31,321 nucleotides of DNA from a virus: the IMG/VR virus record IMGVR_UViG_3300044646_001704, positions 1 to 31,321 of that record; one strand, given 5' to 3'. Made by a program: the position numbers and the translations under genes. Shown here piece by piece: positions 12,187 to 29,394 of this stretch. Each line of letters opens with the position of its first letter. Position 1 is the first letter of the stretch. The notes beneath the pieces were generated by a model. It did no database searches. It saw nothing but the letters and a program-made list of their open reading frames with translations, and had not been told where the DNA came from.

Positions 12187-15100
12187 TTACCTGTTAAAGA
12201 AGAACCGCGTGAATCCCGGCATGCCGAGTTCTTTATCCAGCTCCGCCGGATCAACTTTGCCATCGATTATGTCGTCAATCAAAGTTGCGCCAGTTGTTTT
12301 GTTCTTTCCAGTTTTCAAAATTTGATTCAGACGTTGCCGTTGCCTCTCATAGAACTGATCGTTGTAGTCCGTTCTAAATGCCAATCGAGCCTGAGCCGAC
12401 TTGTACATGCCCGGCATCGAAGCAAGTTCCTTGTAGTCTTCAAGATAACGGGCCTGATCGAGAGCTTTTTGCTTGTCGATGTACATGTTGGCCATGATCT
12501 CAAGCGCGGCATCTCTCGGCATGCCTGCGCCCGGAGTCGCTGCGGCAATTTGATTGAGAGCCTGAAATGCCCTTTGCCCTGCGGCCTGAACGCCCTCGAA
12601 TTGCATCGCCGTCGAGAGCTTTTGCGCAATGATGGACTTGTCGACGTCAGAGGGCAAAAGTCTATACTCTTGCGGAACTCCAAGTGACTGTTGGATATCG
12701 TTGATTCTAGCTATCAAAGTCGTTCTAAGTGAGTTCAAAGGGCCCGCCCCGACAAATCCTCCCTCTAATCCCGCAAGTTGTCTTGCGAGTTGGTTCAGGC
12801 TTGTTCCAGATTCTGCCGCAGAGATTGCGGCTGCATTGATGGCTTCTTCATCTGCAATCGATTTTGCGATAAATGCATTGCGCTGAGTCTCCGGCATCGA
12901 GAGCAGCGCATCAGAATCCGCACGCGCCTTGGCCATATTGGCCTCGGAAATTGTCGGATTCCACTTGTACTCACCGACCGCTTTGTCGCCCTCGGCAGAA
13001 GACGGACGACCCGGAACGGCAGGTTCTTGCGGCGCCGCAGGCGTCGTTGCTGCGGGCACACTGGCGCCAGATACAGGAGTTGCGCCCGGCAAATTTTTGA
13101 TGATTTCGCCAGCTTGCGCAGCGCCTGCTGTTGGCGGCTTGCCCATATTGTGCCACTCAGAGAGCGTAACGGTCTTGCCATCGGCGAGCACAACGTACGT
13201 GAGGCCAGCGCGAACAAAGATCGCATTCTGCGGGATCGTCTGCGCTTCGGCAGCCGTGAGCACGCGAGTCTGTTGCGTGTCCGTCTTCGTCTTTTCAATG
13301 TCCGCCAATTGTTTGCGGATATCGGTGTAAGACTTCGTACCAGCACCAAGGCCGGCAGCAAGTGCTACGCCAAGGCTATAAGTCGGCGCCGTGCCCATGG
13401 CTGCAATGCCGCTGAGAAGCGGAATTAGATTCTCGGGCTTACTCAGACTTTCGCGAGCGCCGCTGATAGCCTCAGTAATTTTCTGGCCACGAGTCGGCAT
13501 GCGAATGTTTGGCGCTTGCAAAAGACTTGAATCGAGAGCGCCAGCGCCCATCATTGTTGGCGCAGAGATATCAAGGCCCGGGCGCGGAGCCGCCGCAGGA
13601 GCCGCCGCAGGCGGTGCGCTCACTGCCGCTGCAACTGCGTCCGCCGCTGGCGTATTGGACGCCGCCGGACGCGGACGGACAGGAGGACGATCAGGTTGTT
13701 TCACCGGATCTGGCGCCCCTTCAAAGCTTCCGGTCGCGCCAGTTCTATCGCGCTGAGCTAACCTCTGGCGCTGGGCTGCCGCGCTTTCTGGCGTCACCCC
13801 ATAGCCGGCATAGTCTTGGATGTCTTGAAGGATTTCAGAGAACAGGCCGCCCTTTTTCTTTGTGCCGCCATCTTGAAAGCCTTCGCGACCAGCAGTGCCG
13901 CCGGCGGCTTTCTTTTTACTGTCGCCGATTGACGAAGCTTTTGCAGCAAGATCCAAAATCTTCTCGAGCTCATCAAGACCGGACTCTTTTTCAGCAAGCT
14001 TACCGGGCGTGGCCAGCGTAAAACTTTGCGCGCTGGTAGGGATATTTAACTTCGCACCTTTACCGCCGCCATAAGGCATGGCCTCACCGCCGGCAGCCAT
14101 TCTCGGGCCAACGGTTGATGAAGTTGGAGTTGGGGCTTCAGCTTCACGCTTCCGCTTTCTCTCTTGATACTCTTGGTACTTTTTATAAACGTTAGATCCA
14201 GTCTCGCCAATTTTGGCGGCTTGCTCGAGCGAATCGAGAACGCTTGGCGCTTCGGGCAACGAACCCGCAGTCGTGAGAGACGAAACAGGCAACGAACCTT
14301 GCGGGACATAGCTGCCACCACCGCCGGGTAACCCGCCGGGGGCTCCGCCATAAAGTCCCGCCTGAGAATAGGGGCCAAACATCTGAGCCTGAGCGGCGAG
14401 CAAAGCGGCCATATCACTCGGGCCAGCAAAGCCCGGGCTGCCGCCTTGCTGGAAGCCCTGATAAGCATCAGCCGAATCAACAGCGCCACCCATGGCGCCG
14501 CCCAAAGCCTTGCCGACAGATTCTTTGTACTTAAAGCTGTAGACGGGCTGCCCGTCATATAGCTCGCCAACCTTATGCACGTCTTTCTTTGCACGGCGAT
14601 CCGACAGCATGGCAATCGTGGCTACGATTGATGCAATCTGCGAAGCCTGCTCAAGGGTTGGATCTTTTGCTGACACGCCTTCGGGCGCATCCAATTTCGG
14701 CGGTGCCTTGTTCTCTTGCGGGATATCAATTCCGCCACCTTGCTTCGGCAGGTCGACTTTGGCAGCCCCGACAGGCGCCGCAGCGACAGGCTTTGAAGCC
14801 TCAGCAACCGCCGCTTCAGCCTTTCGCTTTCGCTCTTCCTCTTGGGGGTCAGCAGGACCGCCCAAGGCGCGCTTGCGAGCGGCATCTTCGGTGGCCTTTT
14901 CGTAATCGACCGTCTTGTAGCCGCCGACCTCGCCGACCGCTTCCGGTTTGACCTTCTCGACGTCTTGCGCCATGAGGCCGAGCTGCGTGCGCGGCTCGCC
15001 CTTGTACTTGTAGGCGTAGATGGGTTGACCGTCGTTGGTCTTGCCGACCTCGCGGACGTCTTCCTTGAGGCGTCTGTCGGAGAAGAAACCGCCCGGCTGC

Positions 15101-16242
15101 TTGGTCGTTGTCGTCGAGCCGGACAGAGAACCCGTACCCATAGCGATGTTTCCAAGGAACTGAGCCACTTGGAACGGGTAAGAGAGCTGCTGCAGGTATT
15201 GGTTGTAGAGCGCCTGCAAGCCAGCCTGCTGCGTCTGCTGAGCGGCCTGACCGGCGCCGAGCTGAGCTTGAGCGCCCTGTAGAGCGGCTCCCTGAGCCCC
15301 TGTGCCGAGCGCGGCAAGCTGCTGGGCCGTGCCAGCCCCCATGCCATAGAGGCCCTGCCCGAGCCCCTGCTGAGCCTGCGCGGCCTGCAAGGCCTGCTGA
15401 TACTGCTGCTGGCCGAGGCCCTGATAGGCCTGACCAAGCCCCAAGCCCATACCAAATTGCTGTTGGGCAAGATTTCCGAGCTGACCGGCTGCCGCCAATT
15501 GGGCTGCACGGTTTGCCTGCTCGGCACCAAGGCCGAGCTGTTGCTGCTGCTGAGCCGTTTGCAGGGCCTGCTGGTAGCCGCCACTGAAAAGATTCGAAAG
15601 GGTGCTGCCCCGGGCCAGCTCCTGCTCTCGGGCAAGATTGGCGGCAGCAATGCCTGCCCGGTCGCCACCAAAGGCGCCCGAGCGAATGGCATTTCCAAGC
15701 TGACCCATTTGAGCCTGCTCGGACTCTCGCCGCATAAGATCCAGCGTGCTCCCGGCAACCGCGCCGAGATACGGGTTCATGTATTGCCCGATTTGAGCGC
15801 CGCCTAATTCACCGGGCCTTACTGCCCCTGCGGCACCCCCAGTAAGCCCAAGGGCGGCCTGCTGAGCAGGTTGTGCGGAGCCATATGCGCCGCCAAAGGC
15901 TTGCCCGGCTTGCGTGCCGAGAGCAGCGCCAATGTCTTGCCCATAGCCAATATTCTGAGCGCCGGCCATGTAAAAGGGCATGGCGGCTTGTTGGGCGCCG
16001 GCGAGCTGATACTGCGCGCCAGTGAAATAAGGCTGAGCAAGCCCAGAGGCTTGATTGACGTTATAAATGCCGGCTTGTTGAGTCGGCGTGAGAGGGGCGA
16101 CAAAAGCGGACGGGTCATACGAGTAAGGCTGAAACGGAATGTTTGCAGTTTGCTCGGCACGCGCATTGACCGCGTTATATCGAGCCAGAACCTCTGGTGG
16201 GATCTGGACTGTTTGGGTTGAAGTTGAACTTTTGCCGCCCAT
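12187..16242 (-). CDS. giant internal virion protein with two S74-type chaperone modules, 1351 aa
   Basis: Starts MGGKSSTSTQTVQIPPEVLA. Residues about 60-370 are Gln/Ala/Gly-rich helical repeats (QQQQQLGLGAEQANRAAQ). A peptidase S74-like segment follows: FFSDRRLKEDV (S at about 387, K five residues later), then DGQPIYAYKYKG, LGLMAQDVEK and TVDYEK. A second, shorter copy, MLSDRRAKKDV...DGQPVYSFKYKES, begins at about 543. Next come Gly-rich and Pro/Ala-rich linkers, a hydrophobic stretch (PLLSGIAAMGTAPTYSLGVALAAGLG) near 934-966, and a helical C-terminal third. Size, linkers and the adjacent transglycosylase protein suggest a DNA-ejection core protein. Its role is inferred; the S74 motifs are seen directly. 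Confidence 0.75.
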   Translation of the reverse strand: MGGKSSTSTQTVQIPPEVLARYNAVNARAEQTANIPFQPYSYDPSAFVAPLTPTQQAGIYNVNQASGLAQPYFTGAQYQLAGAQQAAMPFYMAGAQNIGYGQDIGAALGTQAGQAFGGAYGSAQPAQQAALGLTGGAAGAVRPGELGGAQIGQYMNPYLGAVAGSTLDLMRRESEQAQMGQLGNAIRSGAFGGDRAGIAAANLAREQELARGSTLSNLFSGGYQQALQTAQQQQQLGLGAEQANRAAQLAAAGQLGNLAQQQFGMGLGLGQAYQGLGQQQYQQALQAAQAQQGLGQGLYGMGAGTAQQLAALGTGAQGAALQGAQAQLGAGQAAQQTQQAGLQALYNQYLQQLSYPFQVAQFLGNIAMGTGSLSGSTTTTKQPGGFFSDRRLKEDVREVGKTNDGQPIYAYKYKGEPRTQLGLMAQDVEKVKPEAVGEVGGYKTVDYEKATEDAARKRALGGPADPQEEERKRKAEAAVAEASKPVAAAPVGAAKVDLPKQGGGIDIPQENKAPPKLDAPEGVSAKDPTLEQASQIASIVATIAMLSDRRAKKDVHKVGELYDGQPVYSFKYKESVGKALGGAMGGAVDSADAYQGFQQGGSPGFAGPSDMAALLAAQAQMFGPYSQAGLYGGAPGGLPGGGGSYVPQGSLPVSSLTTAGSLPEAPSVLDSLEQAAKIGETGSNVYKKYQEYQERKRKREAEAPTPTSSTVGPRMAAGGEAMPYGGGKGAKLNIPTSAQSFTLATPGKLAEKESGLDELEKILDLAAKASSIGDSKKKAAGGTAGREGFQDGGTKKKGGLFSEILQDIQDYAGYGVTPESAAAQRQRLAQRDRTGATGSFEGAPDPVKQPDRPPVRPRPAASNTPAADAVAAAVSAPPAAAPAAAPRPGLDISAPTMMGAGALDSSLLQAPNIRMPTRGQKITEAISGARESLSKPENLIPLLSGIAAMGTAPTYSLGVALAAGLGAGTKSYTDIRKQLADIEKTKTDTQQTRVLTAAEAQTIPQNAIFVRAGLTYVVLADGKTVTLSEWHNMGKPPTAGAAQAGEIIKNLPGATPVSGASVPAATTPAAPQEPAVPGRPSSAEGDKAVGEYKWNPTISEANMAKARADSDALLSMPETQRNAFIAKSIADEEAINAAAISAAESGTSLNQLARQLAGLEGGFVGAGPLNSLRTTLIARINDIQQSLGVPQEYRLLPSDVDKSIIAQKLSTAMQFEGVQAAGQRAFQALNQIAAATPGAGMPRDAALEIMANMYIDKQKALDQARYLEDYKELASMPGMYKSAQARLAFRTDYNDQFYERQRQRLNQILKTGKNKTTGATLIDDIIDGKVDPAELDKELGMPGFTRFFFNR

Positions 16243-16245
16243 GAA

Positions 16246-16767
16246 TCAGTGCTCCCGTCTGTTTTCCTTCCCGGTCTTCGCCCCATACAGGAAGAAAGCA
16301 CCGCTTGGTTTACCAAACTGGCGCTCATACATTCGAACTTTGGCCTCGGTGCGGCTGTTCGACAATACACCAATGATAAGCGGTATTCCAAGCGTGTCAG
16401 CAACTCGCTTGCTGAATTCGCAAAGTTTACGCCCTCGACCACCCTTTGCGTTTCTAAAATCAGGGTGTATGAAGATGGCCTTTTCTTCAACGACATAATC
16501 GTCGGCGTACCACATGGTGCCGATCCTGAGAAGGACCACGCCTTCAATTTTATCGTTGGGCTTGCCGATCAAACCTACGATGCCGTAGTTAAAGCACAAG
16601 GCCGGGTAAATTTCTGCCGCTAGTTTTTGCGGATTAGGATTTAAAAAACCGTTCTCATCACAAGCCAGCGTGGCAATTTGCATGATCTCATCAAGATCCT
16701 CAGGTCGACCAGCGCGAATGCGCAAGCCTTCAGCATCAACTTTAATGTTTTTAAGAATGTCTTCCAT
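16246..16767 (-). CDS. GNAT N-acetyltransferase-like protein, 173 aa
   Basis: The ATG at 16767 is preferred over an in-frame TTG at 16773 because AAGGA lies at proper distance; it follows the upstream stop by two bases. The fold order fits GNAT enzymes: LRIRAGRPEDLDEIMQIA opens, IEGVVLLRIG is the central strand, and EEKAIFIHPDFRNAKGGRGR (about residues 94-113) forms strand beta4 plus the R/K-x-x-G-x-G acetyl-CoA loop. It ends with IPLIIGVLSN and the typical MYERQFGKPSGAFFLYGA C-terminal fold. Similar acetyltransferases are common in virion operons of short-tailed phages. Substrate unknown; it could modify a virion or host protein. Confidence 0.8.
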   Translation of the reverse strand: MEDILKNIKVDAEGLRIRAGRPEDLDEIMQIATLACDENGFLNPNPQKLAAEIYPALCFNYGIVGLIGKPNDKIEGVVLLRIGTMWYADDYVVEEKAIFIHPDFRNAKGGRGRKLCEFSKRVADTLGIPLIIGVLSNSRTEAKVRMYERQFGKPSGAFFLYGAKTGKENRREH

Positions 16768-16769
16768 AT

Positions 16770-17426
16770 TCAATCCTTTTTAGGTCCGGGTAGTTTCTGA
16801 AGTGTCTTAATAGTTTTCTTTCGATAGCTCTTCACAAATTCATCTAGCACGCGATGGCCAAGTTCGAGATCGCCCTCGCCAACCATGCGAACTTGCTCGG
16901 GTGATACAACATATTCGCCGCCAGCCGCAACGATGGGGACCGATTCTGACTCACCGCCATTAGCCTTACCGGGCAGATTGGAGCCATAAGGGCCGCCACC
17001 CATCTTAACGCTCGTCGGGCCAGAGTACGGCGTGCCCCCGAAGATGATTTTCATCTGCTTGAATCCGGCCATTGTGTTGCCTTCGCCCATGGCGCTGACA
17101 ATGTCGGCGGGAATTACATAGGAGCCACTCGGAACATGCATGGGGAGATGATCTGTCCGACCGGCAACATGACTATGGATCGGGCCAGTGTGCAGCTTGG
17201 TCACAGGCGCCTTGACCTTAGGCGAAGGCGGCTCTTTCATCTTCTTTGCAGGCTGATACAGACCGCCGGATGTCGTCGTCTCGACTTCATAACCGCCCAA
17301 AGCTTTCGCTTTACGTGCCGTATTTAAAGCGGCAGCGATGGCCTGCTTCTGCGGGTGGCCAGCATGCATCATTTCACTGATGTTGGAGCTGATGGTTTTT
17401 TGTGAGCTTCCTTTTTTAAGGGGCAT
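16770..17426 (-). CDS. virion-associated protein with duplicated motif (DUF6496-like N-terminus), 218 aa
   Basis: Starts [20 protein letters not shown]; a TTG 21 bases upstream would lie inside the previous gene and is less likely. The N-terminal pattern KKGSSxKTISxNIxEMxHxGxPxKQAIAxALxxAR recurs in small phage proteins (DUF6496-type, from memory). Two related motifs follow: [18 protein letters not shown] (100-117) and [18 protein letters not shown] (169-186). The C-terminus [22 protein letters not shown] is very basic. GGEYVVxPExV motifs are common in phage internal or tape-like proteins. Likely a minor virion protein. The start follows the upstream stop by two bases (TAATCATG). Confidence 0.7.
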
Positions 17427-17428
17427 GA

Positions 17429-18676
17429 TTACACCGTCAAGTTCCAATAAGTGATTGCGCCAATGGCGTCACCGGTCCCACTAAGGGTTCTAATGCCAAG
17501 AGTATAGATATCACTGGCAGGTGCCAATGAAACGCCCAACTGCAAATCCCAGTTGTAAGCCAGTATTTCAGAGATAGGGGCTGAGCCTTGATTGCTGGCC
17601 GCAACATAGCCTTGCTCGCATATATCACCGCCCGTATACCCGCTAGCGGCTACATCAAATTCAACCGTTGCGTCAGAAGGAACCGCATTCCAAGAAGGAG
17701 TGCCTGTCAAAGTTGGGTTTTTAACAAGAACAAATTCAAAATCATCCGCAGAGTCTGGGAAAACGTTAAGAGTTCTAGGAAGAACAACGGCACCGTATCC
17801 CGTCGAGGCAAGGCGAATTGAAATTAAAGGCACGAATGTTGTGCCAAGGCCGGTTAAAGATGTTGACCTTCTTGCTACCTGAGGTTGAGAAATTTGCTCA
17901 TATCCACCTTCAGAAACAACACTGGAGCAAATTTGTTTTAGTGTTGCAGCGCCGCCAATAGTCCCTGTTGTTGTGATTTCATATCGAACAGGCAAAACGG
18001 CAGTTGTCATGTAAACCGTGTTGTTTACGTTCGCATTCTGAAATGTATGGCAAATAATGTACTGGCCATTAATAATGAAACCGCATCGGACGTTGCCCAC
18101 ACCAAGCCATTCAATGTCAGTCCAGAATATTTGCGACTTGGTAAGATCAAGAGTAAGTCCGCTTGCCCCCGTGCCATCCAACTTATCGCCATTCCAGTTC
18201 GCTTGTGTGGCCGCGTTGGTATCAACCGGCGAGCCGCTAACAGAAGATCTAACAACAAATGATTTTGTCGTTCCATTTAATTGAAAGAAAATGCCATTGT
18301 CTGCATTGAAATAACCTACGCGCTGGCGCAAGTTTGTTGTTGCCGTTGCCATGACAAAGGTAGCTAAAATTAAAAGACCTTTACCGGGCTGATATGGCAT
18401 GACGCGGAAACTTTGACGAACGGCAGAATCGCCGGAAGCTGTCGTTACGTTCAAATTAACGGCTGCTTGTGCCGCCGTGTATGTAATCGAGGCGCTGCCC
18501 GCAAGAGATTCTGAAAATTGAGCGTCTTTTGCAAACCTATTTTTGCTATCAAAAATAGTGTAAGGCTGGCTTACTCTAAGCCTTCCAAAAGCATCAACCG
18601 TAGGGCCGCCAAACTGCGTGTACTGAGCAGTGGAAGTAGATGACCCAATCGGCGGAAATAACGAAATCGTGCTCAT
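17429..18676 (-). CDS. virion structural protein, 415 aa
   Basis: Starts [20 protein letters not shown]. The segment [20 protein letters not shown] (about residues 27-46) is a signature I associate with structural proteins of tailed phages, often near decoration or neck genes. The rest is beta-rich with repeated Ser/Thr strands ([40 protein letters not shown]) and no enzyme motif. No membrane segments. Its ATG overlaps the stop of the small upstream structural gene by four bases, so the two are probably made in similar amounts and may form one complex. Confidence 0.75.
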
Positions 18677-19089
18677 GCGATCAAGCCTCCAGAGGCCGTG
18701 ACCGTGCAGCCCGTAGTCGATCCCTTAACCTGAACAGTGGTTCCAAATGACATTGTGATCGCGCCAGTCCATTGCATGGTGCTATAGCCCGGCAAGTTGG
18801 CATTAAAAAAGATTGCATTTGACGCGGCTGCAGAGCCATTAACCGGCACCACCGATACGTAGATGCCTATGGGCGATGCCGTGGTATTGCAGATCTCAAT
18901 ATCGCGAAGAATGGCTGTTGACGTATTTGGCACCGTGTAGATGGTTGCATAAGACGCCGTCATAGCTGCCTGTCCCATCTTCGTGGGAGAGGCCAAAGAA
19001 GCCAGAATGTTCATCGACGTCGCGATGCTGTTGATGCCAACAACGCCGTTTTTCTGAGCGGTCAAAACATCTGACAGTGAAGTACTCAT
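18673..19089 (-). CDS. small virion structural protein, 138 aa
   Basis: Starts MSTSLSDVLTAQKNGVVGIN. An N-terminal helix of about 30 residues leads to a beta-sandwich-like domain (YATIYTVPNTSTAILRDIEI, PIGIYVSVVPVNG) ending in strands MSFGTTVQVKGS and [10 protein letters not shown]. The compact beta domain resembles small decoration or fibre-joining proteins. It is joined by overlaps to genes on both sides (TGATG with the 772-aa gene, ATGA with the 415-aa gene). No specific function recognised. Confidence 0.7.
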   Translation of the reverse strand: MSTSLSDVLTAQKNGVVGINSIATSMNILASLASPTKMGQAAMTASYATIYTVPNTSTAILRDIEICNTTASPIGIYVSVVPVNGSAAASNAIFFNANLPGYSTMQWTGAITMSFGTTVQVKGSTTGCTVTASGGLIA

Positions 19090-21407
19090 CAGAATTTACC
19101 GTCCTGCTGGAATCGATATCGAATGTTACCGATACGCCAGAAACTATCAGCATCATTGCTCTCGAGCGTAATCGACACCAATCGACCCCTGAATCGAGGC
19201 GTGATGTACTCGACAGACTGAGTCATGGGGAATGGGCCGTAAGTTTTTGGCGTCGCGCCGGCATAGTCCAGAACGTTAAACGTCAGATTGATCGTGGCGT
19301 TCTGAGGACCGTTGAATTCACCCCACTTCATGTCTGGCCAGATCTGGTCGATGAACATCTTCAGGTCTGCTTCATTCATGACAAAGTAACCCGTCGTGAA
19401 GCTCGAGACCATGGGAGACGTGTCATTGTTGTAGCCAACTTCGTGCTGATAGATGTAGGTGTTGTTCCCATCAGCTCCAATCGGCGAACCAAAGACAGAC
19501 TGATCGATCCATGCCGTTCGGGACAATAAACCGTAATCCCATACCTGCAAAGCTGTGTTGTACTTGACGTATGCGTTAATTTCTCCGCCATTACTTTTTG
19601 TCGGGTAATACCAAGTCACCTCAGCAAAGCGAGTGTTGACAGCGCACCGAATCTTATCAAGGTTGTTTGTATCAAGATCTTGGAAGATAACGTCCCAGAC
19701 AGGGCATGAAACCATTTGCACGCCACTTCCTGCGAGCATAAAAAATTGCGTAGGACCCATCCAATAGAAGACGCCGTTAAGAGCGCCGGCAGCCTTCTTT
19801 GCAATCAGTCCGCAATTGGCGCCCACCTCGTTAAATGAATAAACGAATGGCGGCCCAATGTACTGCATGGAGTACAGGTTGATATCAGTCCAGATCAGAG
19901 CTTGTTGAGCTGCCTGCAAGCAACCTACGATCCTTGACCCCTTGGCAAGCCGGAACGAACCGGCTTGATTGGTGACGGTACCAATCCAAGTGTTGTAGTT
20001 ATTGACATCGCTCCAGCGCAAAAGAAGCGGGTCTGGTACGCCTGTAAAAGTTGAGCCCCAAGACACGATTTGCCTTTGCGGCATGGCAACAAACGAGCCA
20101 TCATTATAGGTCGGGCCGCTCGAAAGAATGGTTGAAAACGGTTGGCCAATCAGCGGGTCCCATTTGAAGATAGGCTGAAATGGCGTTTTGAAAACATAGA
20201 TATCACCACCACTGACATAGGCCGTGGTTATGGCTGATGCGACAGTGAGGCTGCCAGAGGATGAAGCAGTTACGTAGTACGATCCGTTATAAGTAGATGG
20301 AACCACATTTGTGATCACCACATACTCGCCGACAACGGGCGTGTAATTCTGAGAGAAAGTAAACGTGGCGGCAGAGCCTGATCCTGTTACTCCTGTAACA
20401 GTCAGATTGATCTGCTCTTCAATTGGATTTGATATGAGCTGTTCGCCCCAGTTATCAAGTGTCCAATCCTCGGCATTTAACGGGTCTCCGGTTGCCGGGA
20501 TGATGGCTGTTCCGACGCCATAACCACCTGAGCCGTATGCGCCAACGCCATAACCTGTGCCGGCTGGAATAGCGCCTAATCCATAGCTGTAGATGTACCG
20601 AGCCCGACCACCGTTAAGCGTGGCTGTAGCGGTTGCAGATGCCTCAACATCTCCAACAATGACAAATACGCTTGAACTGACAACTTCAATAACAACGTAA
20701 TTGCCAAAGATTAAAATTCCGCCGACAAGCGTCGGCGTGACAATAGAGAATGTGCTACCTGCCGTTTGGCCATGATCTGGAAAAGTAACTTGAATTTGCT
20801 CATCGCCAGAAGTTGTATCAAAAATTGGCAATACGGGCGTATTGTCAGTCGTTAATGCTGCTACTGGCGAGCCCAAGGCATCTCGAGCTTGGATGTGATA
20901 GGCCGTGGCAGACAAGAAGTTGTCAGGGTTACACTGATAAAGACCATAAATGATCAAGCCGCCAATGTTGATAGGCGTGGCGACATAGACCGAGTTGTAG
21001 ATTGTTTGATTTTGAAGCGTGGAATCGGTAATGGTAACAATCGAGCTTCCAGCAGTCGTGTCAACAACCGGCGTAATATTGTCTTCGTTTCGAGTTGGCG
21101 TGATGTCTTTTTGGCCATTGTCTCGAATGGCATAAAGACTTGCTTCGTACGTGTTGGTCTCATTCTGATTACCAACGCCAAGGTACTTGTTTGCCTCAGT
21201 ATCTTGCCAAGCCCAAAGAGCCCTTGTGATAGAGGGCATGTAATTGGGGTAAAACTTGACCCATCCACCTAGTTTTTGAACAAGACCAAGTCCTGTACGG
21301 TCATAAATAAATCGAATGAACTGGGATTCCGATATTCCGGCCTCGTTCAAAGCCGGCGTTTGGTTCTGGTCTACGCCGGGTTTTAATTTAACTGATGCGT
21401 GAGGCAT
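19089..21407 (-). CDS. large tail protein, beta-propeller/stabilisation-type, 772 aa
   Basis: The opening VKLKPGVDQNQTPALNEAGI, then FIRFIYDRTGLGLVQKLGGW, followed by RALWAWQDTEANKYLGVGNQ, is a pattern shared by large tail proteins that resemble P22 gp10-type DNA-stabilisation or tail-hub proteins. The middle has several beta repeats (VTGSGSAATFTFSQNYTPVVGEYVVI). The C-terminal third carries blade-like segments (GVFYWMGPTQFFMLAGSG) and ends FRGRLVSITLESND...FWRIGNIRYRF, a closing motif typical of such proteins. It lies next to the adaptor-like gene (gap three bases), which fits a place in the neck or tail. Family assignment is by pattern only. Confidence 0.65.
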   Translation of the reverse strand: MPHASVKLKPGVDQNQTPALNEAGISESQFIRFIYDRTGLGLVQKLGGWVKFYPNYMPSITRALWAWQDTEANKYLGVGNQNETNTYEASLYAIRDNGQKDITPTRNEDNITPVVDTTAGSSIVTITDSTLQNQTIYNSVYVATPINIGGLIIYGLYQCNPDNFLSATAYHIQARDALGSPVAALTTDNTPVLPIFDTTSGDEQIQVTFPDHGQTAGSTFSIVTPTLVGGILIFGNYVVIEVVSSSVFVIVGDVEASATATATLNGGRARYIYSYGLGAIPAGTGYGVGAYGSGGYGVGTAIIPATGDPLNAEDWTLDNWGEQLISNPIEEQINLTVTGVTGSGSAATFTFSQNYTPVVGEYVVITNVVPSTYNGSYYVTASSSGSLTVASAITTAYVSGGDIYVFKTPFQPIFKWDPLIGQPFSTILSSGPTYNDGSFVAMPQRQIVSWGSTFTGVPDPLLLRWSDVNNYNTWIGTVTNQAGSFRLAKGSRIVGCLQAAQQALIWTDINLYSMQYIGPPFVYSFNEVGANCGLIAKKAAGALNGVFYWMGPTQFFMLAGSGVQMVSCPVWDVIFQDLDTNNLDKIRCAVNTRFAEVTWYYPTKSNGGEINAYVKYNTALQVWDYGLLSRTAWIDQSVFGSPIGADGNNTYIYQHEVGYNNDTSPMVSSFTTGYFVMNEADLKMFIDQIWPDMKWGEFNGPQNATINLTFNVLDYAGATPKTYGPFPMTQSVEYITPRFRGRLVSITLESNDADSFWRIGNIRYRFQQDGKF

Positions 21408-21410
21408 GAA

Positions 21411-22190
21411 TTATCTCGGGGGATTTGCAGTTGGCGTGGGGCTATAAGACGTCCAAGCTCCAGACTCAAATTTCTTTCTGAATTCCTCAACAACAGCCCC
21501 GCGTAACAAGGCCTGATATTGACTCTCGTAGCTCTGCGCCATAGCCGGGTCATCAGACTGACGGCCAAAGTTTCTCTGGAAGGCGCTGATGTAAATCATG
21601 CTTGCCATGATCAAAAGGTCAGGCAAATAAGAGCTGATAAAGGTCGAAGCCGTAGCGGCCAGAACAGGTGTTGCGGAGTTCTTGGCCAGAGAGGGCATGC
21701 GAATCGTGCCCGTCGCGGTGCCCGAATAGCTGGCATCGCTGTAAGGGCCGAAGAGAATATTGATCGACGTGTTGCCGCCGGTATTTCTGTCTCCGCCGTA
21801 CATAGCAAAGTATTTTGGGCGGCCACGGGCAGCCGTTGCCGTGCTGCTATAAACGTTCTGCAGCCACTCTACGGTCGTCGGTAGGAGCGTATAACCGACC
21901 CCGCCGCTAGAAAGGTTGACCGTTTGCAGAGTGACAAAGTCATCCGTATTGATCTGCAGGAGGTTGACGCCGGTAGTGAAGGTAATGGGCAGAGACGTCT
22001 TCAGGTTCAGAAGGTCAAGGTCGCGCTGAATCCGCAGCTCGGCATAGTTCAACATCTGTGGAATCAGGTCATTAAATGCCTGATCTACGCCCTCCACAAT
22101 GCCCCCAACCGTCTGGGTGTCGACCACGGCCAAGGTCGCAATTTGCGTCACGTACGAGTTATAAGTCAGCGGTGTAGTCGCGACAGCCAT
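21411..22190 (-). CDS. adaptor-like head-tail connector protein, 259 aa
   Basis: Starts MAVATTPLTYNSYVTQIATL. Helical N-terminus with FNDLIPQMLNYAELRIQRDL, then SLPITFTTGVNLLQINTDDF strands, GRPKYFAMYGGD, a FGPYSDASYSGTATGTIRMP strand pair and a C-terminal helical bundle (YESQYQALLRGAVVEEFRKK). This helix, beta-sheet, long C-terminal helix order, with P-x-Y-F and a Y-rich strand, is the pattern of phage adaptor proteins that link portal and tail. A second adaptor-type protein is present at 29397-30089. It precedes the large tail protein, consistent with neck assembly. Moderately sure of the fold, less sure of the exact position in the virion. Confidence 0.65.
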   Translation of the reverse strand: MAVATTPLTYNSYVTQIATLAVVDTQTVGGIVEGVDQAFNDLIPQMLNYAELRIQRDLDLLNLKTSLPITFTTGVNLLQINTDDFVTLQTVNLSSGGVGYTLLPTTVEWLQNVYSSTATAARGRPKYFAMYGGDRNTGGNTSINILFGPYSDASYSGTATGTIRMPSLAKNSATPVLAATASTFISSYLPDLLIMASMIYISAFQRNFGRQSDDPAMAQSYESQYQALLRGAVVEEFRKKFESGAWTSYSPTPTANPPR

Positions 22191-22237: not shown

Positions 22238-24421
22238 CTAGCAGGCTTCCTGCACGATTCTCAAGTTATTCTGCAGCCTTTCATCACTTGGCTGCTTTTC
22301 AAGCGCCAGCCGGGCTTGGGTTCTAGAAATCTCTTTAAAACCCAAATTCCACGCAGCGATGCTCGCCAAATCATGGGGTTTAGCACCCCAGCAGGCGGGG
22401 TCCGAAGTATGCAAATACGCTCGATCCATAATGTTCAAAGCATGCATCGAGGCATGATAGCACTCGATCCAAAGACCCCATTCGTAACAGGCTTGGGCCA
22501 AATCGCACCACGGCTCACGAATTGTGGGCATCTCGGCGCAAGCTCTACGGAACCACCTCTGGGACTCGAAACCTCGATCAAGAGCTTTGTTTGCCTTGCC
22601 CAAAATCCGCATCATGTGCGTTCGCTCGTGGTCCCAGTAAGCAGTTGGCAAAGCCAGATACCTCTGTGCTTCATCGATACAGGCCTGCCACTTCTCATAG
22701 TAGAACAGCTCTCGAGCGTGGTAGTACGCCATTCGGTGGCAAGCCGGATTTTCTTTTACCGCCTGTTCCAAAAGAGGCAAATACTGCCCCCGGGACTTGT
22801 TGATATCGGGCTCATGGCGAATTAAAACGCCGTCATAACGAACGATTTTCTCAGGCGTGATGGGGATGATGTACTCGTGAATCGGGTACCGCCAGTCGTA
22901 GTTGTTGCGAGCATGGATCTTCTCGCCATAGAAGATATGGTCGCCGCTCCAGTCTTGCTTATACCTAAGCCTGCCCGTACCGGGCGTCCACATTTCCTCA
23001 ACTACTTTTCGCCAGCCCGGCTCAAGCACCTCGTCCAAATCAAGGGGGATACAGACCTTGGCATCTTTTGGGACCAAGGCAAGAGCCGCATTTCTGGCAT
23101 GGTCAAACCGCCATGGATCAATGCTGATGGAGTAGACCGTCGCCCCGCAGGCCTTCGCAATCCCGACCGTCCTATCGGTGCTGCCGGTGTCCGCGATGAT
23201 GATGTAGTCGGCGCCTTGTGCTGATTTGATGAACCGCTCGACGTGCTTCTCTTCGTTTTTGGCAATGGCATAGACCGCGACCTTGATGTTCTCGCGGTAC
23301 GTGTTGAGCGTCGTCATCCACTTTTGTTGGGCAAAGATAGGCCCAGAGCCTTCGTACTTCACGCCGGTGTAATGCTCGGGGATAAAGTAAGACGAGGGCC
23401 AGATGTGGAAATCTTGTGGATGCTTTTTGTGAACTTCTGTGAAAATGACAGGTCCAGTTTTAATCCAAGCCGGTCCATCAGGGACTGTTGGATCATCCTT
23501 GATGGCATCGATGACCGCCTTGAAAAACGGGTGGCCGGGTGCCGAGGCCATATACCCCACGGCAATCATGCCGGGTCTGGCTGTTTCATTCTCCCAAGGG
23601 GCGCAGGCTGAACCGCAGAAAAGCCAGTCTTCGAGAGGCTTCACGCACTCGCTGTCCGCATCCACTGCAAAGCCGCCATGGGCGTGCAGGATCTCGTACC
23701 GCATCATATCGGCGACGCCGTTGTACTTTTTCTGCTCGAGATACGTCTTGATGTGGACGCTATTTATCCAGTCCGTTGCATGCAATTCCTCATTGCCCCA
23801 GACGTGGACTTGCCATCCCGGGTTTTTTTCAGCCCACGTTTTGATTAAGTCATCGGGGCGTTTAAGTTCATCGCCTATCCAAACAATGTGGATTTTGCGC
23901 GGAATGGCCTGAAAGAATTGGCCGCTTTTTGACCAAGCATAAACACCGATTCCGCCGTAGACATTCCCTAGAACGGGACTGCCAAAAAGCGAACGGGCTT
24001 CCTCGTCAGTCCAATTGTCTTTGACGTGCCGCTCGTAGGGGTTGCCTTCGTGTTCGCCCTGAGGCCAGTGGCCGATAGGAATGCTGGCAATAACGGTTTC
24101 GGCGCAATCCTGCAGCTTGCGAATGAGATCCTTCGCTTCGTCATACGTCATGTGCTCGAGGACGTCACCGGCAAAGGCGACATCGTAACGATCAAAGGGC
24201 TGCCACTCTCTGGCATCCCCTACGATCAAAGTTTGATACAGCTCGTTGAGATTGTACTTCTCAACGTAAGGTTCCCATACCTCTACGCCGGTCCATTCAG
24301 CATCAGGGAACAGCTTGGCATACGTGCCAACTCCGCACCCGATATCGAGCATCTTTTCGTGTTTGACTGTGGAAACGATTCTCTGAATTTCTTGCTTACC
24401 ATTCGTACTGCTAACAGGCAT
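22238..24421 (-). CDS. methyltransferase-GT32-GT2-TPR-like fusion, 727 aa
   Basis: At least three enzyme domains in one chain. Residues 1-165: class I SAM methyltransferase, with MLDIGCGVGTY (24-34) as the SAM loop, TGVEVWEPYVEKY as motif II and AFAGDVLEHM (82-91) as motif IV. Residues about 172-370: DXD glycosyltransferase (GT32/Gly_transf_sug type), with PRKIHIVWIGDE, NGVADMMRYEILHAHGGFAV and DADSE (D254, D256). Residues about 380-550: GT2-like, with VAVYAIAKNEEKHV, DTGSTDRT (411-418) and the DLDE acceptor motif (461-464). Residues 560-727: helical, TPR-like. It sits in the late operon just after fibre genes, so the likely job is to build a methylated glycan, on the virion or on host surface material. 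Confidence 0.85.
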   Translation of the reverse strand: MPVSSTNGKQEIQRIVSTVKHEKMLDIGCGVGTYAKLFPDAEWTGVEVWEPYVEKYNLNELYQTLIVGDAREWQPFDRYDVAFAGDVLEHMTYDEAKDLIRKLQDCAETVIASIPIGHWPQGEHEGNPYERHVKDNWTDEEARSLFGSPVLGNVYGGIGVYAWSKSGQFFQAIPRKIHIVWIGDELKRPDDLIKTWAEKNPGWQVHVWGNEELHATDWINSVHIKTYLEQKKYNGVADMMRYEILHAHGGFAVDADSECVKPLEDWLFCGSACAPWENETARPGMIAVGYMASAPGHPFFKAVIDAIKDDPTVPDGPAWIKTGPVIFTEVHKKHPQDFHIWPSSYFIPEHYTGVKYEGSGPIFAQQKWMTTLNTYRENIKVAVYAIAKNEEKHVERFIKSAQGADYIIIADTGSTDRTVGIAKACGATVYSISIDPWRFDHARNAALALVPKDAKVCIPLDLDEVLEPGWRKVVEEMWTPGTGRLRYKQDWSGDHIFYGEKIHARNNYDWRYPIHEYIIPITPEKIVRYDGVLIRHEPDINKSRGQYLPLLEQAVKENPACHRMAYYHARELFYYEKWQACIDEAQRYLALPTAYWDHERTHMMRILGKANKALDRGFESQRWFRRACAEMPTIREPWCDLAQACYEWGLWIECYHASMHALNIMDRAYLHTSDPACWGAKPHDLASIAAWNLGFKEISRTQARLALEKQPSDERLQNNLRIVQEAC

Positions 24422-24649: not shown

Positions 24650-27376
24650 TCAGGGGAAAAATAACTGGAAAAAATTTCCGGTTCCCGCCGCTGGGCAGGC
24701 CGTAAAAATCAGTCCGGTATTATCGCCGTTGTCCGTCGAGTTTGCTCCAACATACCATCGATTGGCGGGAGTTCCGGCGATATCGCTGACGAAGAGATAG
24801 TCGACGCAGACGTTACCGCCGTTCTTAACGACGTTAGCCTTTGTAACTGAACTACTCGACCGAAGTGTAATTAAATTACCGGCGGTTCCTGAGAGCGAGA
24901 AGTTATCGAAGGTAACCGTATTTCCATTGAATAATTGTAGCGGCCATGCGCCGGTTCGCGTCGTCTCAATATTTCCTACGGTCATATTTCCGTAGAGTCT
25001 AATTTCTCCTGTGGACGACCCGCCGCCGATACGCACAGTCCCGACGTTAGGGATCGTAACGCTACTGTTTCCAAATGTACGAGTGTCGTTAGTAGTTGAC
25101 GAGATGACCCACGTACAAGAAGAAGCGTTAAACGTAGTCCCGGTCGCGTTATATTCGAATACATTAGAGGTATTGCCAGTAAGCGTAATAGTACTAGTTC
25201 CGAGATTTAGAACTTTAGTCCCCGTTGCTTCGACGTCGAATACGGTACAACTAATAGCGTAATCATCGCTATCAAACGTACCGGTTCTAGCAGTAAAAGT
25301 ATTATTTGTTGTTAAAGCAGAAGTAAGCGTTAACGACGAGCCAGCGGTTTTATCTATAAAAATACTATTTTGTAAACTCGCGGTTCCGAAGTTAGCCGTA
25401 GAGTTAGCGGTTCCTCTAAAGGACAAAAATCCCTGAGATGCGTTTGAGGCTGGGGCATAAGTTGTTCCCGCATTCAAATTTGCGTGAATATAACATTGAT
25501 TAAGTCCACCACCATTTGCGCTTCCTACAAATCCTTGCAAATCAACGTTTTTAAAATAACCGCCAGACACAGAACCTGTTCCTGCGGTAACTTCAAAATC
25601 TACGACGTCGGAATCGCCCCACGTAGAAGGAAAATTAAAAGATCTAGAACTTGACGTATTTTGACTACAAACGAATTTATTTCCCGTACCTAATACTTGG
25701 GTAAAGTTAGTCGCTGTACTTAAATCGAATATATTTCCATTAGATGTGAATTCTATTACTGCGTTATTGCCCCATTGGAGCTCGCGAACAGTTGTAAAAT
25801 TTAAATTATAAGGCGAATTCGTTTTCCACGTCTTGCCGTTAAGATCTAATATTCCTCGTCGGTGAAGGTGCCCCGAAGTAGGCAAAGTTGTAGATCTTGT
25901 AGTCGTTACGTTATCTGCGAACGTAACCTTACCGCCACCGGCAGAGTTAAAACCGAAATTTAAGTTAAGGCTAACGCCATTTGTCGTGATCGTTCTATTC
26001 GCTCCGTCAACATTCCACATATCGATAATAGCGCCGGTTCCGCCGACAGTCATACCGGTGCCGATTGTTAAATTTCCTACTACATATAAACTTTGGAGTG
26101 TGATTGTTAATGTAGCGGCACTAGTTCGATCGCTTAAATCTAAGTTATTACAAGCCCAAGGACCAGTGGTAACGCTTACGGTCCCTGCCGCTCCTGCGTT
26201 CGTAAAGAAAACATCGTCTTGTGGTAACGGAAAATTATTTAATGCCGGAGCTCCGGTATCAGTTAACGCCCAACCGGTAGAAGTCCATGATTGCGAACCA
26301 GCAAGATTCCAATATTTATTCGCGGCGGCGGTAAAGGTTATCCCGCTACAACCGCCGAGATTACCTAGTCGAGTTCCCGTAAGCGGGGCAGCGGTCCCCG
26401 TAATTGTTATATTTCTAAAATCTGTATCGGAGGGAGAGCAAGAATTAACGGTTAACGTTCTAACAAAATCGGAATCATCAGAAACAATCCTGACTCGCCT
26501 AATAGCGGTTGCGCCAGAAACGGTTAAAGTGCCATTTATCGTACAGTTACCACCGAACTCTATGGTCTGCTGTCCTGTAGCACTAGGACCGGTAACGGTT
26601 AAATTATTAAAAGTATTTGCGCCATTGATACTAAATAAAGTATCTGAACCGGTGGCTGTATAGCCAACATTATAAAAAGTTAGTCCTGCAGAATCTAATT
26701 CACTTGTATCTCTTACAAAATTTATTGTTGATGTTCCTGCGGTAAAAGTTAGATTCGTAATTGTTGTAGCATTAAATTCACTAGTAAGATTCCCTCGAAC
26801 TGAAATCGTAGATGAACCTAATTCGATAGTGCGAGTTGAGGTTCCAGAGATGTTCCAATTGCCGTCCGTTATATTGTTGTTATTTGTTTTCCATGTTCCC
26901 GCTGTTAATGTAAATTCGCCAAAAGAAGTAGATAGCGTCACCGCACTTTGCTGCGTCCACTCTCCTCCCGCTCCATTGACAGTAATGTCAAGATACGTTC
27001 TTGCTCCGAAATCGACAGTCTTTCCCGTAGTCGTTGCTCTAAACGTAACATTACAAGAAGTAAAAACATTGTTAGCCGAATTCGCGGCGGTAAAGTTACC
27101 GTAGCATTGAATACCGTTAGTAGAGCCGGTACCAAAAGTAATAATTTTATCTGGCAAAGATGCGCCGGTTCCAACGGTAAAGTTATTGCATACGGATGCT
27201 GAGGCTGTCAGCGTAACAGTAAAATTTGAGCCGGAATCAGAGTTATTATCAAAGATAACGTCGTCCGTAGTCAGCGGCGGCCCAGCGCCAGTCGCGCCAC
27301 CAGATCCCGTAGACCAGTTCGCGGTATTAGATCCGTTCCATGTCCCTGCGCCGCCAACCCAATAATATGTGGCCAT
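24650..27376 (-). CDS. beta-solenoid fibre / adhesin protein, 908 aa, with internal duplication
   Basis: Starts MATYYWVGGAGTWNGSNTAN. The chain is almost entirely Ser/Thr/Asn/Gly-rich beta repeats (TLSTSFGEFTLTAGTWKTNN, GTSTITLTGNTSNVFEYNA), the texture of a right-handed beta-solenoid. YWxxAGxxxW...DDVxF appears twice, at the N-terminus and again near residue 354 (KYWNLAGSQSWTSTGW...PQDDVFFTN), so the protein is built of two large units. No hydrolase motif is visible. Sampled stretches have 27, 22 and 19 G/C per 60 bases (from 25201, 25801 and 26701), lower than the neighbours. GAGGT is upstream. Likely a virion fibre or spike; not proven. Confidence 0.7.
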   Translation of the reverse strand: MATYYWVGGAGTWNGSNTANWSTGSGGATGAGPPLTTDDVIFDNNSDSGSNFTVTLTASASVCNNFTVGTGASLPDKIITFGTGSTNGIQCYGNFTAANSANNVFTSCNVTFRATTTGKTVDFGARTYLDITVNGAGGEWTQQSAVTLSTSFGEFTLTAGTWKTNNNNITDGNWNISGTSTRTIELGSSTISVRGNLTSEFNATTITNLTFTAGTSTINFVRDTSELDSAGLTFYNVGYTATGSDTLFSINGANTFNNLTVTGPSATGQQTIEFGGNCTINGTLTVSGATAIRRVRIVSDDSDFVRTLTVNSCSPSDTDFRNITITGTAAPLTGTRLGNLGGCSGITFTAAANKYWNLAGSQSWTSTGWALTDTGAPALNNFPLPQDDVFFTNAGAAGTVSVTTGPWACNNLDLSDRTSAATLTITLQSLYVVGNLTIGTGMTVGGTGAIIDMWNVDGANRTITTNGVSLNLNFGFNSAGGGKVTFADNVTTTRSTTLPTSGHLHRRGILDLNGKTWKTNSPYNLNFTTVRELQWGNNAVIEFTSNGNIFDLSTATNFTQVLGTGNKFVCSQNTSSSRSFNFPSTWGDSDVVDFEVTAGTGSVSGGYFKNVDLQGFVGSANGGGLNQCYIHANLNAGTTYAPASNASQGFLSFRGTANSTANFGTASLQNSIFIDKTAGSSLTLTSALTTNNTFTARTGTFDSDDYAISCTVFDVEATGTKVLNLGTSTITLTGNTSNVFEYNATGTTFNASSCTWVISSTTNDTRTFGNSSVTIPNVGTVRIGGGSSTGEIRLYGNMTVGNIETTRTGAWPLQLFNGNTVTFDNFSLSGTAGNLITLRSSSSVTKANVVKNGGNVCVDYLFVSDIAGTPANRWYVGANSTDNGDNTGLIFTACPAAGTGNFFQLFFP

Positions 27377-27390
27377 TTACCATACCTCGA

Positions 27391-29394
<2,004 letters not shown>

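What the first reader, a model, noticed from the sequence alone, without database searches (positions are those of the whole stretch)
22238..24421. Single-chain methyltransferase, GT32-type, GT2-type and TPR-like fusion
Four recognisable regions with intact key motifs (DIGCG, DADSE, DTGSTD, DLDE) lie in one 727-aa protein. Such stacking of a methyltransferase with two different glycosyltransferase folds is unusual and could make and cap a short glycan in one step. The position of a glycan enzyme within a virion operon rather than the early region is also notable.
Basis: partly seen in the sequence, partly recalled or inferred. Interest (0 to 1): 0.7.

Follow-up and report, generated by a model that had tools for sequence, protein, structure and literature searches.

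The report
Phage collagen-fibre glycosylation and methylation enzyme
This virus gene makes one long protein with a methylating part, two different sugar-adding parts and a protein-gripping tail; its sugar-adding core belongs to a large family found next to collagen-like genes in both phages and bacteria, so it most likely decorates the virus's own collagen-like fibre with a short methylated sugar chain.

Summary
A single complete 727-aa ORF lies on the MINUS strand at 22238-24421, with a class I methyltransferase (1-166), a GT32-type domain (170-376), a GT2 domain (379-575) and a TPR tail (576-727). All named motifs are present and the domains are under purifying selection. The GT2-TPR core belongs to a family of hundreds of viral and bacterial members with collagen-like (Gly-X-Y) genes just upstream, almost never downstream: 40/66 versus 0/71 viral loci within 3 kb; 30/66 versus 0/75 bacterial loci within 1 kb. 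Here the collagen-like gene (27391-28656) is 3 kb upstream, with Thr at 73 of 76 Y positions. C. difficile SgtA, a 358-aa GT+TPR enzyme, puts beta-O-GlcNAc on Thr of BclA3 collagen repeats; its sequence could not be retrieved, so homology was not tested. MT-GT2-TPR without GT32 is common; GT32 sits at one fixed junction. PBCV-1 A064R (GT-GT-MT in one chain) is a precedent for build-and-cap. Best reading: a self-contained O-glycosylation and methyl-capping enzyme for a phage collagen-like fibre. Domains are shown; acceptor, donors and capping are inferred.

The parts
22238..24421 (-). 727-aa fusion protein MT-GT32-GT2-TPR (whole gene, stop codon included)
   Evidence: homologues
23924..24421 (-). 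class I SAM-dependent methyltransferase domain, residues 1-166 (motif I DIGCG at 24332-24346)
   Evidence: Pfam Methyltransf_25/11; D26, G28, G30, G32, D86, E89, H90 invariant in 23 sequences; confident in AF2 model
23294..23914 (-). GT32-type glycosyltransferase domain, residues 170-376, inserted at the MT/GT2 junction (DxD = D254-A-D256 at 23654-23662)
   Evidence: PF04488, AF2 pLDDT 93, Foldseek to YeGT/SetA/Och1, both DxD aspartates invariant in 29 sequences
22697..23287 (-). GT2 domain, residues 379-575 (DTGSTD 23174-23191; LDLDE 23030-23044)
   Evidence: PF00535, D461/D463/E464 invariant, Foldseek SunS/ThuS
22241..22696 (-). TPR superhelix, residues 576-727, putative peptide-acceptor binding tail
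   Evidence: TPR_14/TPR_2 in relatives, helices in model, TPR structures incl. OGT
27391..28656 (-). collagen-like tail-fibre gene, predicted acceptor (421 aa; Gly-X-Y region 27844-28533, Thr at 73 of 76 Y positions)
   Evidence: PF01391 2.7e-32, PHROG tail fiber, composition
24650..27376 (-). 908-aa putative adhesin/fibre protein between the collagen-like gene and the enzyme; alternative acceptor
   Evidence: no Pfam or PHROG match; highly variable between near-identical relatives

Best explanation
The protein is a single-chain protein O-glycosylation enzyme for the phage's own collagen-like virion fibre. The TPR tail holds the unfolded Gly-X-Thr chain of the fibre protein. The GT2 domain puts the first sugar on Thr (by analogy with SgtA, beta-O-GlcNAc from UDP-GlcNAc, Mn2+-dependent). 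The GT32 domain adds a second sugar, and the methyltransferase O-methylates that glycan as a cap. Shown here: the four domains, their intact motifs, purifying selection, the family-wide link to upstream collagen-like genes in phages and bacteria, and the high Thr content of the partner collagens. Inferred: the acceptor, the donor sugars, the order of steps, that GT32 extends rather than starts the chain, and that the methyl group goes on the sugar.
For: Domains and folds. GT2+TPR is the architecture of polypeptide glycosyltransferases: best PDB fold match SunS/ThuS, E 8.7e-17; GmaR and SunS also by sequence profile. Positional link to collagen: viral loci 40/66 with a collagen-like ORF within 3 kb upstream versus 0/71 downstream; bacterial loci 30/66 within 1 kb upstream versus 0/75 downstream. 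Standalone GT32 loci have 0/36. A Peribacillus plasmid has annotated 'collagen-like protein' then 'glycosyltransferase' side by side. The isolated phage DSL-LC01 has two collagen genes upstream of a standalone GT2-TPR. Thr at Y: window 73/76; in a set of viral collagens picked without regard to Y, mean 0.70 with a GT2-TPR in the locus versus 0.32 without, p = 2e-5. Biochemical precedents: SgtA adds beta-O-GlcNAc to Thr of BclA3 collagen peptides and is a 358-aa GT+TPR protein encoded beside bclA3 (PMC7157674); PBCV-1 A064R builds and methyl-caps a virion glycan with GT+GT+MT in one chain (PMC9614988).
Against: No direct proof of activity, and SgtA's sequence could not be fetched, so homology to it is untested. 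In this window the collagen-like gene is two genes away, not adjacent. Many viral loci with the enzyme show no upstream collagen-like ORF in the DNA held (52 of 109, many cut short), and the same-lineage test anchored on the neighbouring virion gene was underpowered (2/4 versus 1/9 at 8 kb). Distant GT2-TPR relatives in jumbo phages sit in virion operons with no collagen within 8 kb. The Thr comparison is not corrected for relatedness. Nothing shows what the methyltransferase methylates.
Confidence: 0.65

Rival explanations
1. It glycosylates a different virion protein, such as the 908-aa fibre/adhesin (24650-27376) between the collagen gene and the enzyme, or a capsid/tail protein, as phage-encoded glycosyltransferases do in mycobacteriophages.
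For: Gene order puts 24650-27376 nearer. Mycobacteriophage capsids and tail tubes are glycosylated by phage enzymes (PMC12363180). Distant relatives in jumbo phages lie in virion operons without collagen.
Against: The 24650 gene varies strongly while the enzyme and collagen stay nearly fixed (L005: 52% versus 99-100%). Bacterial relatives sit beside collagen genes outside any virion operon.
Confidence: 0.15
2. It modifies a host surface glycan (O-antigen or other), to block superinfection or change the receptor, the usual guess for phage glycosyltransferases.
For: This is the role usually proposed for phage glycosyltransferases, e.g. PMC7029224 and PMC10202952.
Against: The domains found account for the whole chain and none is a membrane domain; a TPR tail fits polypeptide acceptors; the gene is in the middle of a tightly packed virion operon and its family tracks collagen genes.
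Confidence: 0.12
3. The methyltransferase acts on the fibre protein or on a precursor rather than on the sugar, so the fusion is two independent fibre modifications rather than build-and-cap.
For: The MT belongs to general class I families with no assigned substrate; MT without GT32 is common.
Against: A064R-D3 shows that a class I MT fused to GTs can be a sugar O-methyltransferase. Mycobacteriophage Phrappuccino encodes a homologous MT and a GT32-like gene in one run of glycosyltransferase genes.
Confidence: 0.15
4. DNA hypermodification enzyme (methylation and glycosylation of bases).
For: Phage glycosyltransferases often act on DNA; proposed for isolated actinophages (PMC10202952).
Against: Best matches are polypeptide, glycan and small-molecule enzymes; virion operon, not replication region.
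Confidence: 0.02

Closest known systems
Clostridioides difficile SgtA (BclA3 collagen O-GlcNAc transferase; PMC7157674)
   Same: GT domain of GT-A type plus C-terminal TPRs in about 350 aa, same size as residues 379-727; gene beside a collagen-like gene; acts on Thr in collagen repeats; metal dependent.
   Different: Single GT+TPR protein of a spore; no methyltransferase, no GT32. Homology by sequence not tested (sequence not retrievable here).
SunS/ThuS glycocin S-glycosyltransferases and GmaR
   Same: GT2 catalytic domain; SunS/ThuS are the best fold match; all are polypeptide glycosyltransferases.
   Different: Cys of glycocins, or flagellin, as acceptor; no MT or GT32; low identity (13-16% for SunS/ThuS).
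Chlorovirus PBCV-1 A064R (638 aa; PMC9614988)
   Same: Two glycosyltransferases and a class I methyltransferase in one viral chain that build and methyl-cap a glycan on a virion protein.
   Different: Order GT-GT-MT, rhamnosyltransferases of other families, acts on an N-glycan already begun on the capsid protein, no TPR tail.
GT32 family (Och1, SetA, YeGT)
   Same: PF04488 domain, GT-A fold, DxD motif.
   Different: Compact version of about 205 aa fused inside a multi-domain phage protein; donor unknown.
Mimivirus L230
   Same: Viral enzyme with a glycosyltransferase domain that modifies viral collagen.
   Different: Hydroxylates Lys and adds Glc to it; unrelated second domain; eukaryotic virus.
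Uncharacterised 'Glycosyltransferase, DXD sugar-binding motif' proteins of uncultured Caudovirales (A0A6J5ND39, A0A6J5T0S5)
   Same: Full-length fold match, 790 and 797 aa, 33-35% identity.
   Different: No function assigned; domain order not examined here.

Membership tests
GT2 polypeptide glycosyltransferase with TPR tail (SgtA/SunS-like) | GT2 fold with DxD-type metal site followed by TPR helices | tested here: met
SgtA-like collagen O-GlcNAc transferase | gene linked to a Thr-rich collagen-like gene | tested here: met
   window collagen 3 kb upstream, two genes away; family-wide upstream enrichment
SgtA-like collagen O-GlcNAc transferase | sequence homology to C. difficile SgtA | not tested
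SgtA-like collagen O-GlcNAc transferase | transfer of beta-GlcNAc to Thr of collagen repeats | not testable with these tools
   needs an enzyme assay
GT32 | PF04488 match, GT-A fold, DxD motif | tested here: met
class I SAM-dependent methyltransferase | class I MT fold with motif I | tested here: met
   substrate unknown
A064R-type multi-transferase | GT+GT+MT in one viral chain | tested here: met
   domains; PMC9614988 for A064R
A064R-type multi-transferase | same domain order (GT-GT-MT) | tested here: not met
   here MT-GT32-GT2-TPR; may work like it, not a member

The most novel reading that the evidence does not exclude
Many tailed phages carry a self-contained collagen O-glycosylation system: a GT2-TPR core that starts glycans on Gly-X-Thr repeats of a virion fibre, extended in several lineages by a fused methyltransferase and in some also by a GT32 at a fixed domain junction, so that one polypeptide builds and methyl-caps a BclA-like glycan on a phage fibre. 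I found no published description of collagen glycosylation in tailed phages in the papers searched.
Probability: 0.5. Interest if true: 0.75.

Novelty: new variant of a known kind. Interest (0 to 1): 0.58.

Why it matters
If true, tailed phages commonly coat their collagen-like fibres with sugars using their own enzymes, as spores coat BclA. That would give a concrete function to a large, vaguely named phage family (PHROG_13126, 'beta-1,4-glycosyltransferase'), whose members are usually guessed to act on host surface sugars or DNA. It would also offer a single-chain route to glycosylated, possibly methylated collagen in E. coli, and suggest that fibre glycans affect host recognition or stability. 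The acceptor is named, so the idea is directly testable.

Tried and rejected
Reading on the + strand (several stops). Repeated independent insertion of GT32: the GT2 tree needs 7 changes (6 forced by well-supported branches), but all fused GT32 domains form one clade apart from standalone ones (100/99), so one insertion followed by losses or domain exchange is preferred. A same-lineage control anchored on virion gene 19089-21407, to test collagen presence with and without the enzyme: too few loci with enough flank. Structure of GT32 from the full-length alignment: residues 265-377 poor, so it was remodelled with its own homologues. Literature searches for phage collagen glycosylation found only giant viruses and spores.

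Full report
What is there. The window is a whole virus record of 31,321 bases. The ORF lies on the minus strand, 22238-24421, 727 aa, ATG start, in-frame stop 21 nt upstream, 2 nt after the preceding gene, in a tightly packed set of minus-strand genes. Neighbours include virion structural proteins by PHROG (21411-22190, 19089-21407, 17429-18676), a collagen-like tail fibre (27391-28656), a 908-aa protein with no family match (24650-27376), an XhlA-like 72-aa protein, an S74-chaperone-containing protein and an SLT-domain protein. The position within a virion operon is confirmed.

Domains. Pfam finds Methyltransf_25 (25-105), Gly_transf_sug/GT32 (191-267) and Glycos_transf_2 (386-478), each above its curated cut-off. 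PHROG_13126 covers 380-725. In 23 relatives the MT motif residues (D26, G28, G30, G32, D86, L88, E89, H90) and the GT2 residues (D411, T412, G413, D416, D461, D463, E464, H515, E516) are invariant. In 29 GT32 sequences both DxD aspartates (D254, D256) are invariant. AlphaFold2 of the full protein is confident for MT and GT2-TPR but poor for 265-377. The GT32 segment with its own 28 homologues gives pLDDT 93, pTM 0.90 and matches YeGT, SetA and Och1. The full model's best PDB matches are SunS/ThuS, peptide glycosyltransferases of the GT2 type. TPR families are called in most GT2-TPR relatives; one member also matches the peptide-binding TPR of prolyl 4-hydroxylase, weakly (2.7e-4), which is no more than suggestive. 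dN/dS against relatives is about 0.03-0.13 where dS was not saturated.

Architecture survey. A first scan gave 46 viral loci. The window's four-domain form is shared by near-identical and 82% identical relatives; most other relatives found there are MT-GT2-TPR of about 520-530 aa with no GT32. GT32 is inserted exactly between the MT end (IGVYxYSK) and the GT2 start (xIxVYAIxKNE). In L025, L027 and L030 a different GT32 is appended at the C-terminus, and L231 is GT32-GT2-TPR. The GT2 tree needs 11 changes for MT and 7 for the inserted GT32, while all fused GT32 domains form one clade apart from standalone ones (100/99). So the GT32 was probably inserted once, then lost or exchanged several times.

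The acceptor. Collagen-like ORFs (at least eight Gly-X-Y) were mapped around the GT2-TPR gene. Viral: within 3 kb upstream 40/66, downstream 0/71; within 5 kb 30/46 versus 1/47. Bacterial: within 1 kb upstream 30/66, downstream 0/75; 37 of 80 within 300 bp. Bacterial loci are mainly Clostridia and Bacilli, where phage operon order is not an obvious explanation. A Peribacillus plasmid has 'collagen-like protein' then 'glycosyltransferase' adjacent. The 36 loci with standalone GT32 have no collagen at all, so the link follows GT2-TPR, not GT32. In the window, Thr occupies 73 of 76 Y positions. In viral collagens picked by a pattern blind to Y, mean Thr at Y is 0.70 where a GT2-TPR is in the locus (12) and 0.32 where not (99), p = 2e-5, uncorrected for relatedness. 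The published average for bacterial collagens is 31.6% (PMC8968730).

Precedents. SgtA is 358 aa, GT then four TPRs, encoded beside bclA3, and adds beta-O-GlcNAc to Thr of BclA3 collagen peptides with Mn2+ (PMC7157674). PBCV-1 A064R carries two glycosyltransferases and a methyltransferase in one chain that builds and methyl-caps a virion glycan (PMC9614988). Mimivirus L230 glucosylates hydroxylysine of viral collagen.

Mechanism. Most likely the TPR tail binds the fibre chain before it folds, GT2 starts the glycan on Thr, GT32 extends it and the MT caps it. Only the domains and the genomic association are shown; the steps are inferred. Weak points: the collagen gene is two genes away here, many loci show no collagen in the DNA held, jumbo-phage relatives have none within 8 kb, and the same-lineage control was underpowered.

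Verdict. Observation confirmed; interpretation partly supported; a new variant of a known kind, with a clear and testable prediction.

Noticed in passing
24650-27376 (-): 908-aa putative fibre/adhesin is highly variable between contigs whose other genes are mostly 90-100% identical (81% in L004, 52% in L005), like a receptor-binding protein under rapid exchange.
   Followed up: partly
16246-16773 (-): GNAT-like acetyltransferase gene inside the virion operon (Pfam Acetyltransf_7 below its cut-off, PHROG acetyltransferase): possibly a second virion-modifying enzyme.
   Followed up: no
12187-16242 (-): 1351-aa protein with a Peptidase_S74 chaperone domain in its middle (residues 388-436) and a similar-looking repeat further on, with matches to DNA ejection and virion proteins.
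   Followed up: no
L050:3433-6077: Isolated phage DSL-LC01 has a tryptophan halogenase gene between its collagen-like genes and the GT2-TPR gene, another possible fibre modification.
   Followed up: no
L345:5461-7823, L350:2927-5289: MT-GT2-TPR gene followed by a separate GT32 gene of the C-terminal type, i.e. the split form of the fusion seen in L025/L027/L030.
   Followed up: no
L135, L137, L141: Brevibacillus and Desulforamulus carry an MT-GT2 fusion directly upstream of the GT2-TPR gene.
   Followed up: no
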